From Oscillospiraceae bacterium (GTDB taxonomy: Bacteria > Bacillota > Clostridia > Oscillospirales > CAG-272), in assembly GCA_015063895.1 (NCBI GenBank), contig SVTG01000005.1, forward strand, positions 71,974-112,386: a DNA stretch of 40,413 nt, written 5' to 3'. The notes under the pieces were generated by a model. That model searched no databases. It was not told where the DNA came from and saw nothing but the letters and a program-made list of their open reading frames with translations. The position numbers and the translations under genes are program-made. Each line of letters opens with the position of its first letter. The first letter of the stretch is position 1. Shown piece by piece: positions 22,463-40,413 of the stretch.

Positions 22463-22538
22463 TGGTGGAGCATAGGGGATTCGAACCCCTGACCCCAACA
22501 CTGCCAGTGTTGTGCGCTCCCAACTGCGCTAATGCCCC
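22463..22538 (-). tRNA. tRNA-Ala (anticodon GGC)
   Basis: 76-nt tRNA on the minus strand with encoded CCA. Acceptor GGGGCAT pairs with ATGCTCC and contains the G3:U70 pair that marks alanine tRNAs. The D-arm is GCGC-AGTTGGGA-GCGC; the anticodon stem CAACA/TGTTG encloses loop CTGGCAG, so the anticodon is GGC (codons GCC/GCU). The T-arm contains GGTTCGAATCC. It has its own promoter and terminator, so it is a single-tRNA unit. Confidence 0.97.
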
Positions 22539-26962: not shown

Positions 26963-27736
26963 ATGAATTACAATTACCACACGCACACCGCGCGCTGCCG
27001 ACACGCCAGCGGTACCGAACGCGGCTATATTGAAAGGGCGCTTTCTGCAGGCATCACCAAGATCGGCTTTTCCGAGCACATTCCGCTTGATTTTGCCGAC
27101 GGGCACGACACCGCACACCGCCTGCCCGTTGCCGAAGAAACACTTTATTTTAACACGCTCCGCGCCCTGCGCGAGGAATATCGCGGCCGCGCTGAGATCT
27201 TCATCGGCTATGAGGTCGAATACTATCCGCTGTACTTTAAAGAGCAGCTTCGCCACGCGCGAGAGCTCGGTGCCGAATACCTGATTTTAGGCCAGCACTA
27301 TATCAGAAACGAGGAATATTTTGAAAAATCGACCTATGCCCCGTCAGACAGCGAGGAAGATTTTATCACCTACACAGACACCGTGATCGAGGCAATGGAA
27401 ACGGGACTTTTCACGTACGTAGCGCACCCCGACGTATTTTCCTTTACGGGCGACTCTTCGCTTTACATACGCGAAATGCGCCGTCTTTGCGAGGCAGGCA
27501 AGCGTCTTGATATTCCCTTTGAGCTGAATTTTCTCGGTATCCGTCAGGGGCGACGCTATCCGAATGAGCGCTTCTGGCAGATCGCAGGCGAGATCGGGGT
27601 ACCCGTAACCTTTGGCTTTGATGCGCATGACGAGGCTGCCGCAGGCGACGTGGCCTCTCTTCCCCGTGCTATGGAAATTGTGGAAAAATACCATCTTAAC
27701 TATATCGGCGAGCCCAAGCTCGTGCTCCTACAATAA
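26963..27736 (+). CDS. Histidinol-phosphatase (HisJ-type) PHP family protein
   Basis: 257-residue PHP-family phosphatase. Metal-binding motifs: YHTHTARC (His6, His8), GFSEHIPLDF, GYEVEYYP, LGQHYIRNEEYF, VAHPDVFSF and FGFDAHDEA at the C-terminal end. The histidinol-phosphatase branch is suggested by ILGQHY, SEHIP and by the length (HisJ/YtvP about 260-270). Its role would be dephosphorylation of L-histidinol phosphate, but no other his genes are in the window, so a different phosphate ester cannot be excluded. GGGAG precedes ATG at 26963. It ends in an inverted repeat shared with the convergent EamA gene. Confidence 0.83.
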   Translation: MNYNYHTHTARCRHASGTERGYIERALSAGITKIGFSEHIPLDFADGHDTAHRLPVAEETLYFNTLRALREEYRGRAEIFIGYEVEYYPLYFKEQLRHARELGAEYLILGQHYIRNEEYFEKSTYAPSDSEEDFITYTDTVIEAMETGLFTYVAHPDVFSFTGDSSLYIREMRRLCEAGKRLDIPFELNFLGIRQGRRYPNERFWQIAGEIGVPVTFGFDAHDEAAAGDVASLPRAMEIVEKYHLNYIGEPKLVLLQ

Positions 27737-27750
27737 AAAATAGCAAGCCG
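27730..27750. repeat. Left arm of 21-bp inverted repeat, AAAAAATAGCAAGCCG core
   Basis: 27730-27750 is the exact reverse complement of 28087-28107. Each arm contains the last codon and stop (CAATAA) of the adjacent convergent gene. Joined directly, the arms would make an ordinary bidirectional terminator with an A/T-tract; here 336 nt separate them. Confidence 0.8.
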
Positions 27751-27815
27751 TGCGGAGCATATTCTTAAGGACAGCTTTTGAAATGTAATAAAGTACGTTA
27801 CCTACCGACAGGAAA

Positions 27816-27855
27816 AGGACGAAGAGTTGTAAAAGCTCCTCGTCCTCTTTTCTTT
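27816..27855 (+). terminator. Terminator downstream of the PHP gene
   Basis: AGGACGA (27816-27822) pairs with TCGTCCT (27840-27846), GAG/CTC pairs inside after one mismatch, followed by CTTTTCTTT on the plus strand. About 80 nt past the PHP gene stop. Confidence 0.75.
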
Positions 27856-27890
27856 GCAAGCACTGCTTTTGTAGCCACAAATGCAAATTT

Positions 27891-28053
27891 AGTGAAGTTT
27901 TCGCTTATGCGAAAGTGAAGTTGCTTTGCAGTGAAGTTCGTGCTATCGCACGAGTGAAGTTAAGTTTGCCCACTTTACCGAAGGCAAAACTTCACGATCC
28001 GCAGGATCACTTCACTTACGAAGTAAACTTCACTTGCCCGCAAGGGCAAACTT
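27891..28053. repeat. Short hairpin array, AGTGAAGTT spacer
   Basis: AGTGAAGTT occurs directly at 27891, 27914, 27930 and 27953, then inverted as AACTTCAC (27988), ACTTCACT (28009), AACTTCACT (28026) and partial AACTT (28049). Between spacers lie small hairpins with unrelated stems: TTCGCttatGCGAA, GCtttGC, CGTGCtatcGCACG, GATCCgcaGGATC, TACgaaGTA and TGCCCgcaaGGGCA. The centre (27962-27991) is an imperfect inverted repeat. Direct and inverted spacers can pair to give one long branched structure. No coding frame is supported. Confidence 0.85.
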
Positions 28054-28056
28054 AGT

Positions 28057-28084
28057 TGCGTAGTGTCCTCGAGGACACTACGCA
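28057..28084. repeat. Perfect 28-nt palindrome
   Basis: 14-nt arms (TGCGTAGTGTCCTC and its complement) with no loop, centred on CTCGAG. It closes the right end of the hairpin array, three nt before the right arm of the outer inverted repeat. Confidence 0.85.
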
Positions 28085-28086
28085 TG

Positions 28087-28107
28087 CGGCTTGCTATTTT
28101 TTATTGT
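28087..28107. repeat. Right arm of 21-bp inverted repeat
   Basis: Exact reverse complement of 27730-27750, with core CGGCTTGCTATTTTTT. It overlaps the stop of the minus-strand EamA gene. Confidence 0.8.
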
Positions 28108-28979
28108 CTTTTAAAATGATATTCGCTGACAAAGGCGGCTCCGAGAATGAGGACCGCACCCACGATACCGAGCACGCCAAGCGGCTCCTTTAAAACAAGG
28201 GCAGACAGCACGACCGCCAAGACGGGGTCGATATAGCTGTAAAGTGCCACGGTACCTGCCGAAAGCTTGGACACGGCACCGAAATACACGGCATAAGCAA
28301 GCCCCGTATGCAAAATGCCGACCACCAACAAAAGCACCACGACCGAGGGCGTAACAAGGCTCACATTCACCTCTTCGGCAAAAAGGATATACGGCAAGAG
28401 CACCGCGACCGACACCGCAAACTGCACCACCGTCTTATCCGTAGCCGAAATACCGATAATTTTTTTGTTAATGAGCACGATACAGGCATACAGCACAGCG
28501 GCAAGGAGTCCCAAAAGAATACCGCGCAGCTCCGTGGCAGACCCCACGCCCGCTTCCATCACGCCCGACACCAACACCATACCAAGAAATGCCATAGCGG
28601 CGCAAATGCCTTTTTTGAGCGTCAGACGCTCACCAAGAAAAATGGGGGCGAGCAAAATAAGCAGGATCGGTGCCATATAATACGACAAGGTAGCAACCGC
28701 CACTGAGGTATACTTATAGGCTTCAAACAGTAAAACCCAGTTGAAGCCGAGAAAGGCGCCCGATAAAAGCAGTGGCAACAGGTTTTTTCGTATGGCGGCA
28801 AGCTGTGGGCGCTGACGCTTCACAAGCATCAAAAAAAGTAAAAAAAGCGCACCGACGGCTGCGCGCATCATAGCGACAACGCCTGACGGCAACGGAATAT
28901 AGCGGCGGAAAATACCGATGGTGCCAAACACGGCCATCGTAGCGATCATCGATATATCGTGACGGTATTTTTTGAACAT
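28101..28979 (-). CDS. EamA (DMT superfamily) transporter
   Basis: 292-residue membrane protein with the ten-helix, two-repeat layout of EamA/RhaT-type drug/metabolite transporters. The first repeat begins with MIATMAVFGTIGIFRRYIPLPSG and includes the ALLFEAYKYTSVAVATLSYYMAPI-type helix after residue 95; the second contains GLAYAVYFGAVSKLSAGTVALYSYIDPVLAV, a typical EamA C-terminal signature. It probably exports a small metabolite or amino acid; substrate unknown. ATG at 28979 is chosen with GAAGGAT before it; longer in-frame reading includes promoter DNA. The C-terminus HFKRQ ends inside the inverted repeat. Back-to-back promoters link it to the divergent beta-CASP gene. Confidence 0.88.
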   Translation of the reverse strand: MFKKYRHDISMIATMAVFGTIGIFRRYIPLPSGVVAMMRAAVGALFLLFLMLVKRQRPQLAAIRKNLLPLLLSGAFLGFNWVLLFEAYKYTSVAVATLSYYMAPILLILLAPIFLGERLTLKKGICAAMAFLGMVLVSGVMEAGVGSATELRGILLGLLAAVLYACIVLINKKIIGISATDKTVVQFAVSVAVLLPYILFAEEVNVSLVTPSVVVLLLVVGILHTGLAYAVYFGAVSKLSAGTVALYSYIDPVLAVVLSALVLKEPLGVLGIVGAVLILGAAFVSEYHFKRQ

Positions 28980-29006
28980 AAGAATAATCCTTCGTTGTTT
29001 TTTCCT

Positions 29007-29035
29007 ATCATAGCATTTTTTAGTAAAAAAGTCAA
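29007..29035 (-). promoter_or_regulatory. Promoter of the EamA gene
   Basis: Minus-strand TTGACT (29030-29035), 17-nt spacer, TATGAT (29007-29012), with its -35 box 7 nt from that of the divergent gene. Confidence 0.65.
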
Positions 29036-29042
29036 TGAAAAG

Positions 29043-29071
29043 TTGAAATTGCAACACATTTGTGGTATACT
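29043..29071 (+). promoter_or_regulatory. Promoter of the beta-CASP gene
   Basis: TTGAAA (29043-29048), 17-nt spacer, TATACT (29066-29071), 41 nt upstream of the ATG. Confidence 0.7.
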
Positions 29072-29111
29072 GAAAAATGAAGAAAGCACACTTTCCCTTG
29101 GGAGGTTCTTT

Positions 29112-30710
29112 ATGAAAATTCAATTTATCGGTGCCGCAGGCGAGGTAACGGGAAGCTGTACTCTGCTTGAGGTCAACGGGCGCTATTATCTCATAGACTG
29201 CGGTATGGAGCAGGGCCTTGACGTTTTACAGAACGTGCCCCTGCCGATCCCTGCCGCCGAGATTGATGCGATCTTTCTCACACACGCGCATATTGACCAC
29301 TCGGGCATGCTGCCCCGTCTTTACAAGGAGGGCTTTCGCGGCATCATCTTTGCCACCGAAGCCACGGTCATGCTGTGTGACATTATGCTGCGTGACAGTG
29401 CGCATATCCAGATGCTTGACGCCGAATGGAAAAATCGTAAGGCGGCACGCGCGGGCGAGCCGACCTTTGAGCCGAGCTACGATCTTGCCGATGCGATCGG
29501 CACACTCAAGCTGATGCGCGGCGTGGCATACGGTCAGACGCTGCCCGTAGCGGCAGGGGTAGATCTCCGCTTTACCGATATCGGACATTTGATGGGGTCG
29601 GCTGCCATTGAGCTCTCCTTAAAGGAGGGAGAGGTCACGCGCAAGATCGTATTCAGCGGTGACGTGGGCAATCTCAATCAACCGCTGATCAACGATCCCC
29701 TACCCGTAAAGACCGCCGATTATCTGGTGCTCGAAGCGACCTACGGCAATCGCACGCACGCCCCCGCCGTTGACACGGTAGAATCACTTGCCGCTTATAT
29801 TGACGACACGCTTGCACGCGGCGGCAACGTGGTGATCCCCGCCTTTGCCGTGGGGCGCACACAGGAGCTTTTGTACGCCATTCGCGAGATCAAGGCGCGG
29901 GGACTTACAAGATTTCCGCACTTCCCCGTTTACGTGGACAGTCCCCTTGCCATTGAGGCCACGCAGATCTTTTCAAAATGTGATATCAGCTGCTTTGACC
30001 GCGAAGCACGGGCGCTGCTTGAGCGCGGCATTGACCCAATCCAATTTGAGGATCTTCATCTCGCCGTTACCGCAGACGAATCGCGTTTTATCAACACCGA
30101 CCCAACGCCAAAGGTCATCATCTCGGCCAGCGGTATGTGCGAGGCGGGGCGTGTACGCCACCATCTCAAGCATAATTTATGGCAGGAAAAGAATCTGATC
30201 CTCTTTGTCGGCTATCAGGGCGTAAACACGCTGGGTCGCGCCATAGCGGACGGTGCGAAGCGCGTGCGGCTCTTCGGAGAGGAGATCGCCGTAAGGGCGC
30301 GTATCAAATCGCTGCGCGGCACCAGCGGTCATGCAGACAAGGAGGGGCTGAAGCGTTGGCTGTTCCAATTTGAGCAAAAGCCTCGCACGGTGTTTTTAAA
30401 CCACGGTGACGAGGAATCGATCGCCGCCTTCAGCGCTGAGCTGCGTGAGCACGGCTATGCCGTGGAAACGCCCTTCAGCGGCACCGAATACGACCTTGCC
30501 AGCGGCGCTATGACCGCTTATACCGAGCGCCGACCGATCGAGCGAAAAGGCAGTGCCGCACGGACACGCCAAAGCACGGTGCATCAGGGCCTGGTGGCGG
30601 CCGCAGAGGCGCTTCTCGCGCTTTGCAAGCGTATCGCCGGGCGCCCGAACAAGGAGCAGGCAAAGCTGACAGCGCAAATAAGGTCGCTCATCGACAAATA
30701 CGACAAATAA
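29112..30710 (+). CDS. Metallo-beta-lactamase/beta-CASP RNA-processing exonuclease-like protein
   Basis: 532-residue protein of the CPSF73-like group of MBL hydrolases. MBL motif 2 THAHIDHSG lies at residues 57-65; DIGHLMGSA and VFSGDVG give motifs 3 and 4. A beta-CASP insert follows, with DYLVLEATYGNR, FAVGRTQELLY, YVDSPLAIEAT, SASGMCEAGRVRHHL and GTSGHADKEGL (motifs A-C and the final histidine). Relatives such as TTHA0252 are endo/exonucleases for RNA, and this is the likely role; it is not RNase J, which has a different C-terminal domain. The last 70 residues form a basic helical tail (KGSAARTRQSTVHQG, RPNKEQAKLTAQI). ATG at 29112 follows GGGAGG. Single gene with own promoter and terminator. 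Confidence 0.87.
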   Translation: MKIQFIGAAGEVTGSCTLLEVNGRYYLIDCGMEQGLDVLQNVPLPIPAAEIDAIFLTHAHIDHSGMLPRLYKEGFRGIIFATEATVMLCDIMLRDSAHIQMLDAEWKNRKAARAGEPTFEPSYDLADAIGTLKLMRGVAYGQTLPVAAGVDLRFTDIGHLMGSAAIELSLKEGEVTRKIVFSGDVGNLNQPLINDPLPVKTADYLVLEATYGNRTHAPAVDTVESLAAYIDDTLARGGNVVIPAFAVGRTQELLYAIREIKARGLTRFPHFPVYVDSPLAIEATQIFSKCDISCFDREARALLERGIDPIQFEDLHLAVTADESRFINTDPTPKVIISASGMCEAGRVRHHLKHNLWQEKNLILFVGYQGVNTLGRAIADGAKRVRLFGEEIAVRARIKSLRGTSGHADKEGLKRWLFQFEQKPRTVFLNHGDEESIAAFSAELREHGYAVETPFSGTEYDLASGAMTAYTERRPIERKGSAARTRQSTVHQGLVAAAEALLALCKRIAGRPNKEQAKLTAQIRSLIDKYDK

Positions 30711-40123: not shown

Positions 40124-40203
40124 AGCATCTTCCACAGGACTTCTCGCGCCCCTCAGATCCGCCAACGCAAAAAAAGAGCCGCGTTTGCGGCTCTTTGCGT
40201 TGG
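40124..40203. repeat. tmRNA-3'-flank module, copy B
   Basis: Copy of 39886-39968 abutting tmRNA: AGCATCTTCCACAGG, CCCCTCAGATCC, CCAACGC, GAGCCGC-gttt-GCGGCTC, GCGTTGG. The last three bases (TGG, 40201-40203) are the complement of the tmRNA CCA end, so this end pairs with CCAACGC at 40162-40168. Confidence 0.75.
40162..40200 (-). terminator. Terminator of tmRNA
   Basis: GAGCCGC (40076 offset within copy B, 40176-40182) pairs with GCGGCTC (40187-40193); on the minus strand TTTTTTT follows. It begins 8 nt after the tmRNA CCA end. Confidence 0.85.
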
Positions 40204-40413
40204 TGGATCCGAGGGGAATCGAACCCCTGTCCGAAAACTCATTCACAGGACTTTCTTCGTGGGTAGTCTGTGGTTTAAAATTCCCTTTGTGCGTCGGTCA
40301 CAGACAATCTACGCCCGCGGGTAGCCCTTTTTTGCATGATCGGTACAAGTGCGAACTCCCGATGCATGTTCACCACTCAATGACGCTCAGCCCGTGGTCG
40401 TGGTCCTCCTCGG
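40201..40413 (-). ncRNA. ssrA: tmRNA (ssrA), 3' portion
   Basis: The minus strand ends with GTTTTCGGACAGGGGTTCGATTCCCCTCGGATCCACCA-type sequence: T-arm, acceptor strand GGATCC and encoded CCA, preceded by the TTTCGGAC stretch found before the T-arm of tmRNAs. Upstream, pairs GTCTGTG/CACAGAC and GCATCGG/CCGAT..ATGC fit the pseudoknot domain. The 5' tRNA half and the tag reading frame are beyond the right edge, so the tag peptide cannot be given. tmRNA with SmpB rescues stalled ribosomes. Confidence 0.85.

What the first reader, a model, noticed from the sequence alone, without database searches (positions are those of the whole stretch)
27891..28084. Branched hairpin array with a 9-nt AGTGAAGTT spacer in direct then inverted copies
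Four direct and three to four inverted copies of one 9-nt word alternate with hairpins whose stems are all different but whose folding is kept. That looks like selection for shape, not sequence. Direct and inverted spacers can pair to form a long stem with small hairpin side arms, capped next to a perfect 28-nt palindrome. It matches no IS end, CRISPR (no equal-length unique spacers), riboswitch or REP element I can name. It may be a mobile non-coding element or a structured RNA made from convergent transcripts.
Basis: partly seen in the sequence, partly recalled or inferred. Interest (0 to 1): 0.75.

Follow-up and report, generated by a model that had tools for sequence, protein, structure and literature searches.

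The report
Terminator-loop element with DNA mini-hairpins
A 336-base DNA element sits inside the loop of a transcription terminator between two genes and carries a row of tiny hairpins whose loops mostly match those of unusually stable DNA hairpins; relatives with other spacer words lie in other terminators of the same and related gut bacteria, so it is likely a mobile element that is predicted to work by folding as single-stranded DNA rather than RNA.

Summary
The array is the body of a 336-bp element (27751-28086) inside a perfect 20-bp terminator stem (27731-27750 / 28087-28106) between convergent genes. At least 14 more arrays lie in the same genome; nine spacer words occur, each direct in one half and inverted in the other. 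The same ends also flank passenger genes; no transposase was recognised among 16 proteins scanned. At one well-conserved locus 17 of 18 relatives have a terminator without the element, so these are insertions into terminator loops. Rfam knows half of the array as Gut-1 "RNA". Three results favour DNA structure: loops are C(GNA)G or C(GNNA)G in 116 of 175 hairpins on one predicted strand and 0 of 175 on the other (control hairpins 6%); the third base of GNNA loops has no purine bias; stem changes are nearly all two-sided. Best reading: a non-autonomous, terminator-targeted mobile element whose array folds as single-stranded DNA mini-hairpins. Movement itself, the enzyme and any benefit are unshown. 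In other families of the order, arrays lie directly after terminators, often behind tRNA genes, and an enclosing stem was not found.

The parts
27731..27750 (.). left arm of the host terminator stem (CAATAAAAAATAGCAAGCCG); the stop codon of the + strand PHP-like gene 26963-27736 lies in it
   Evidence: perfect complement of 28087-28106; gene coordinates; stem statistics; plain terminator in relative L051
27751..28086 (.). the inserted element (336 bp); exact insertion point within the loop uncertain by a few bases
27751..27774 (+). left end, ending in TTCTTAAGGACAG; related ends in other copies and genomes
27812..27852 (.). internal terminator-like hairpin (AGGACGAAGAG / CTCCTCGTCCT with A- and T-rich flanks)
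   Evidence: sequence; same place in other copies
27865..27884 (.). hairpin h0
   Evidence: sequence; two-sided changes between copies visible
27891..27961 (+). left half: direct words w1-w4 (27891, 27914, 27930, 27953) with hairpins h1 (27900-27913), h2 (27923-27929), h3 (27939-27952)
27962..27971 (+). arm A* (AAGTTTGCCC), pairs with 28044-28053 in the Gut-1 fold
   Evidence: same arrangement in 50 of 64 arrays
27974..28055 (+). right half: hairpins h4 (27974-27988), h5 (27996-28008), h6 (28016-28026), h7 (28034-28049) with inverted words at 27988-27996, 28008-28016, 28026-28034 and partial 28049-28055; read by eye the four loops are GAA, GCA, GAA, GCAA (the script scored h6 otherwise, by a tie, and missed h4)
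27984..28058 (-). match to Rfam RF01706 Gut-1 (58.1 bits)
28057..28084 (.). right-end perfect palindrome
   Evidence: same kind of end in other copies
28087..28106 (.). right arm of the host terminator stem; the stop codon of the minus strand EamA-like gene 28101-29123 lies in it

Best explanation
This is one copy of a family of short DNA elements with related ends that sit inside the loop of transcription-terminator stems; it is likely moved by an enzyme supplied from elsewhere, and its row of hairpins is predicted to work as folded single-stranded DNA. Shown by the sequence: the ends, the terminator stem around the copies, terminators without an insertion at matching places in relatives, spacer words that differ between elements but agree within one (direct in one half, inverted in the other), and loops of the C(GNA)G / C(GNNA)G type on one strand of each half. 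Inferred: when the element becomes single-stranded or strongly underwound, small extra-stable hairpins form on the strand whose 3' end lies at each end of the element; the words, complementary between the halves, zip the halves together and bring the two ends side by side. That folded form would be what the enzyme handles, or what protects the 3' ends. The terminator loop would be a landing site chosen by structure that breaks no gene. Untested: movement, the enzyme, and folding in the cell.
For: Copies with near-identical bodies in different stems. 35 elements: outer flanks pair with their own partner at -27.5 against -14.4 kcal/mol for swapped partners, 27 of 35 first; 27 array elements with the ends trimmed off: -23.4 against -11.6, 21 of 27 first, lowest of 10000 permutations -15.1. 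8 elements found by their end sequence alone: own flank ranks first in 6 of 8. ACP-amidase locus: element in G000, terminator without it in 17 of 18 relatives that keep ACP there; window locus: plain terminator in the one of 13 relatives shown that has both neighbours. Loops: 116 of 175 on the predicted strand, 0 of 175 on the other; control hairpins 32 of 524; unique hairpins 62 of 111 and 0; the half outside the Rfam model in order-wide loci 18 of 35 against 1. GNRA is 17 of 34 GNNA loops; G-T and A-C stem mismatches are 6 and 6. GNA and GNNA mini-hairpins of DNA are extra stable, nuclease resistant and protect 3' ends (PMC4686876, passages); phage N4 promoter hairpins with a 3-base loop and a sheared G:A pair extrude at low supercoiling and SSB keeps one strand's hairpin (PMC4496689, passages).
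Against: No transposase or recombinase was recognised in 16 passenger proteins scanned, so the enzyme is unknown and movement is only inferred. No target-site duplication was established. L098 and L110 and L259 lack a good outer stem. In 30 order-wide loci no enclosing stem was found; arrays there lie after terminators (24 of 30). Half of the left-half loops (31 of 62) and a quarter of the right-half loops (28 of 113) do not fit the GN(N)A rule, and the window's own left half fits in only one of three hairpins. Rfam's authors rate Gut-1 as certainly RNA (PMC2864571). Mismatch numbers are small and the arrays are related to each other.
Confidence: 0.6

Rival explanations
1. The array is a structured non-coding RNA (Gut-1), perhaps a switch between the Gut-1 multiloop and hairpin h7, carried by a mobile element.
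For: Rfam RF01706 matches; compensatory changes; the closing arm shared with h7 in 50 of 64 arrays; strong RNA fold.
Against: Most fitting loops are GNA triloops or GNNA loops without purine bias at the third base, which RNA does not specially favour (recalled); the loop strand flips between halves, so one transcript would carry the motif in one half only; few one-sided (wobble) changes and G-T no commoner than A-C; half-arrays in both directions match Gut-1.
Confidence: 0.16
2. The array is kept because its transcript folds compactly and brings the two split arms of the terminator together, or because it ends transcription by itself; it is selected for harmlessness, not for movement.
For: Predicted RNA closes the terminator stem over the folded element; an internal terminator-like hairpin is present; all 35 right flanks have a T-run.
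Against: Does not explain the DNA-type loops on alternating strands or the arrays placed after intact terminators; elements with genes sit in the same loops without an array.
Confidence: 0.15
3. A REP/BIME-like repeat moved by a RAYT or IS200/IS605-type Y1 transposase.
For: Hairpins in direct and inverted order; such enzymes act on single-stranded hairpins (PMC3733652, passages); G000 has one distant Y1_Tnp gene (25.3 bits).
Against: That gene lies beside der in the three loci read and is followed in G000 by its own GTAGGGG repeats; G002, G003, G006, G008, G013 and G019 have element ends but no PF01797 match, though several of these genomes are incomplete; no fixed GTAG foot is seen in the arrays.
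Confidence: 0.05

Closest known systems
Gut-1 RNA, Rfam RF01706 (PMC2864571, passages read)
   Same: one half of the array matches its covariance model over the cut-off
   Different: here part of a larger two-half element with ends, in or beside terminators, with DNA-type loops; the paper lists it as human gut only, here it is in 146 of 394 genomes of an order
MITEs and mobile insertion cassettes (listings only; details recalled)
   Same: short repeat-ended elements without a recognised transposase; versions with passenger genes between the same ends
   Different: no parent element found, no target duplication established, terminator-loop sites, and a hairpin array with element-specific words
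REP / BIME repeats (PMC3733652, passages)
   Same: palindromes in both orientations between genes, variable stems
   Different: no conserved tetranucleotide foot; words differ per element; loops and low wobble point to DNA, whereas GTAG repeats often show G-T pairing according to that paper
Phage N4 virion RNA polymerase promoters (PMC4496689, passages)
   Same: strand-specific DNA mini-hairpins with a 3-base loop and a sheared G:A pair
   Different: single hairpins that are promoters; here rows of them in a repeat-ended element
Group IIC introns (recalled)
   Same: site choice by terminator hairpins
   Different: they insert after the stem and encode a reverse transcriptase; the window element is inside the loop and has no such gene

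Membership tests
Gut-1 RNA (RF01706) | covariance model match over the gathering score | tested here: met
   58.1 bits against 50 for the right half, minus strand; the left half scores 37.5, below the cut-off
Gut-1 RNA (RF01706) | acts as a transcribed RNA | not testable with these tools
   no expression data; loop and wobble counts speak against it
MITE | related inverted ends | tested here: met
   8 inward pairs of an end pattern within 2.4 kb among the places listed; in the window the two ends match only in part
MITE | no transposase of its own | tested here: met
   window element has no gene; no transposase family among 16 passenger proteins
MITE | target-site duplication | tested here: inconclusive
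   matching places differ too much in sequence to show one
MITE | parent element with a transposase and the same ends | tested here: inconclusive
   none seen in the loci read; no exhaustive search
REP/BIME | conserved tetranucleotide foot and linked RAYT gene | tested here: not met
   words differ per element; RAYT in G000 has other repeats
CRISPR | direct repeats with unique spacers of equal length | tested here: not met
   segments between words are self-complementary and of unequal length, and half of the words are inverted
Extra-stable DNA mini-hairpins | GNA or GNNA loop closed by C-G pairs | tested here: met
   116 of 175 array hairpins
Extra-stable DNA mini-hairpins | hairpin formed in DNA | not testable with these tools
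   needs probing of supercoiled or single-stranded DNA

The most novel reading that the evidence does not exclude
A widespread class of mobile DNA whose working part is a strand-directed row of single-stranded-DNA mini-hairpins joined by zipper words that each element rewrites as a set; it lands by structure in or beside transcription terminators, and Rfam's Gut-1 'RNA' is a misread fragment of it.
Probability: 0.45. Interest if true: 0.88.

Novelty: new variant of a known kind. Interest (0 to 1): 0.76.

Why it matters
If right, a family filed as RNA is DNA, gut bacteria hold many natural arrays of nuclease-resistant DNA hairpins, and terminator loops become a recognised safe landing site for mobile elements that also carry passenger genes. 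It also gives a system for studying how several copies of a spacer stay alike within one element while differing between elements.

Tried and rejected
Chance repeat: rejected. Outer stem as part of the element: rejected, because near-identical elements (L002, L003, L010, L015) lie in different stems. RAYT/REP origin: not supported. Enclosing stem in 30 order-wide loci: negative; instead the arrays follow terminators. A lax form of that test gave 27 of 30 but also 163 of 600 random positions, so the strict form is used (24 of 30 against 242 of 13588 positions). L005 locus as a matching place: inconclusive (one plain terminator, L198, other sequences in L196, L197 and L199, downstream gene not checked). 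Transposase among passenger ORFs: none recognised. The first literature query on Gut-1 returned unrelated papers. The recurrent sigma-like passenger protein is one of a large family (2124 hits, only 7995 candidates scored) and gave no hint of an enzyme.

Choices that bear on counts. Array regions and words were set by eye; 16 regions of G000, 15 with a direct-then-inverted word; L044 failed and L020 was reached by 1 of 40 shuffles. One search used the 35 elements for which I had both ends; copies cut by contig ends, copies with no right end found, L111 (same as L095) and the G000 arrays L029, L031, L033 and L044 were left out. Eight of the 35 (L075, L083, L096, L114, L119, L121, L130, L134) were found by stem matching; L115 and L128, kept in the 27, were also first seen that way. 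The loop controls include a few loci that hold elements, which makes them conservative. One search used 64 arrays (L119 left out) and simple letter shuffles. The 30 order-wide loci are the best match of 30 genomes, and many share one arm sequence. The 17 plain terminators were read by eye; L177 and L179 have longer loops or stems.

Full report
Observation. The four direct AGTGAAGTT words and one exact inverted copy are present, with two 8-of-9 inverted copies and one partial copy readable. The feature extends beyond 27891-28084. A perfect 20-bp stem, 27731-27750 with 28087-28106, A-rich on one side and T-rich on the other, encloses 336 bases; both neighbouring convergent genes end inside its arms. 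RNA and DNA folds close this stem and pair direct with inverted words. Rfam lists half of the array as Gut-1, RF01706, on the minus strand, rated in PMC2864571 as certainly RNA and human gut only (passages). A search for RF01706, 'Gut-1 motif' or 'Gut-1 RNA' found only that paper in the library.

Copies. The genome (1.86 Mb, 36 contigs) has 22 DNA matches to the element, some of them parts of one copy, and 26 Gut-1 matches at E up to 1, of which 8 exceed the cut-off (at that loose threshold 4 of 14 control genomes also show a match, none over the cut-off). Of 16 array regions tested, the window included, 15 have a word that is direct in the first half and inverted in the second. The words differ between elements: GTGAAGTT, GTGAAAT, TCGATAT, GCGATAT, TGAAT, TGAAATC, GTGATATT, GTGATGTT and GTATGG. 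An exact scan of genome contigs with a 26-base core gave 39 stretches, all titled as Clostridia or Oscillospiraceae MAGs; 34 of the titles name a ruminant gut sample.

Insertion in terminator loops. Near-identical elements lie in different stems. For 35 elements the outer flanks pair better with their own partner than with others: -27.5 against -14.4 kcal/mol, 27 of 35 first. Eight of these were found through stem matching. Without them, and with about ten bases of the element ends trimmed off, 27 elements give -23.4 against -11.6, 21 of 27 first, with the lowest of 10000 permutations at -15.1. A set found only through an exact end pattern in 246 family genomes (56 with a match) gave 8 inward pairs within 2.4 kb; the own flank ranks first in 6 of 8. 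Matching places: the amidase gene is in 21 of 21 genus genomes; ACP stands before it in G000 and 18 relatives. G000 has an array element inside the terminator loop between them; 17 of the 18 relatives have a terminator without it; G008 has a solo palindrome like an element end in the loop. At the window's own locus, one of 13 relatives shown has both neighbours, and there the terminator is plain.

Passenger genes. The same left end leads into genes instead of, or before, an array in several loci. Pfam names among 16 proteins scanned: sigma-70 regions, TnpV, YpsA, DNA_processg_A, DeoR, HTH_3, Peptidase_S51, SHOCT and DUF4429; four have no match at E up to 0.01, and one has only a match below its cut-off. 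For several of these only the left end was seen. No transposase family was hit; TnpV is a transposon-encoded protein that is not known to be a transposase (recalled).

DNA or RNA. In 35 arrays, 175 perfect hairpins were collected. On the strand whose 3' end lies at the element end, 85 of 113 right-half and 31 of 62 left-half loops are C(GNA)G or C(GNNA)G; none of the 175 has this type on the other strand. Control hairpins with stems of 6 or more: 32 of 524 on either strand, against 57 of 87 in arrays; terminator-like hairpins 3 of 56, all on the opposite strand. Among 111 unique hairpins 62 fit and 0 are opposite; GNRA makes 17 of 34 GNNA loops; stem mismatches are 6 G-T, 6 A-C and 6 other. 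In 30 order-wide loci the half outside the Rfam model has 18 of 35 on the expected strand and 1 on the other; the matched half has 28 of 41 and 0. Such loops make extra-stable, nuclease-resistant DNA hairpins that protect 3' ends (PMC4686876, passages), and N4 promoter hairpins with a similar loop extrude at low supercoiling, one strand's hairpin being kept by SSB (PMC4496689, passages). An alignment of 17 arrays has 39 consensus pairs, 25 with two-sided change; adding up its table I get 116 two-sided, 10 one-sided and 39 broken or gapped of 663 cells. Cells count sequences, which are related, so this is suggestive only.

Switch arm. In 50 of 64 arrays the closing arm and the first arm of h7 share one partner, against 2 of 320 shuffles, with 20 different arms. 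The two folds exclude each other; the design is conserved and its use unknown.

Spread. RF01706 is found at E up to 1e-6 in 146 of 394 genomes of the order, 128 over the cut-off, 74 of 168 genera, and 0 of 14 controls. In 30 such loci no enclosing stem was found beyond the control level, but 24 of 30 arrays start directly after a strict terminator (242 of 13588 positions in the same loci), and 17 of 30 have a tRNA gene within 250 bases upstream. Some of these terminators are identical between genomes, so they may travel with the array; this was not resolved.

Mechanism. Mobility is inferred from copies and matching places without the element; the acting enzyme is unknown. I favour folding at the DNA level, with words that zip the halves. 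Because the words change as a set between elements, one protein reading one word seems unlikely and mutual pairing seems the simpler constraint (inference). Literature listings on elements in terminator loops (titles and abstract starts only) showed none like this; that is not proof of absence.

Noticed in passing
L075, L262, L263 (and the start of L089): A passenger protein of 516-574 aa with sigma-70 regions 2 and 4 and a long unassigned C-terminal part recurs in about 2-kb elements; it belongs to a large family (2124 hits).
   Followed up: partly
L183 (G008), terminator between ACP and amidase: A solo palindrome resembling an element end sits in the terminator loop: an excision remnant or a minimal mobile unit.
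   Followed up: partly
L220-L249, e.g. L241, L243, L245; L032 in G000: Arrays directly after tRNA-gene terminators; one terminator sequence is identical behind different tRNA genes in several genomes.
   Followed up: partly
L119, L134, L259, L162: A small passenger protein with the motif ECCCDECDYF, in L119 after a hairpin-rich leader; no Pfam match for the L259 copy.
   Followed up: no
L003 1215-1390 (G000): A second array with the word GTATGG behind a tRNA gene and terminator, just beside a full element.
   Followed up: no
L256 (G000), L255, L257: A distant Y1_Tnp (RAYT-like) gene beside der in all three loci read; GTAGGGG-type repeats follow it in G000.
   Followed up: partly
L114, L119, L130: Genes or other repeats inserted between the left module and the array, with CTTAATTAAAG-like boundaries: elements nested in elements.
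   Followed up: no
L011 and L012 (G000): A different repeat (GTGTCATCCTGAGCG) joined to element pieces.
   Followed up: no
window 22466-22538 and 40201-40413: A tRNA and a partial tmRNA.
   Followed up: no
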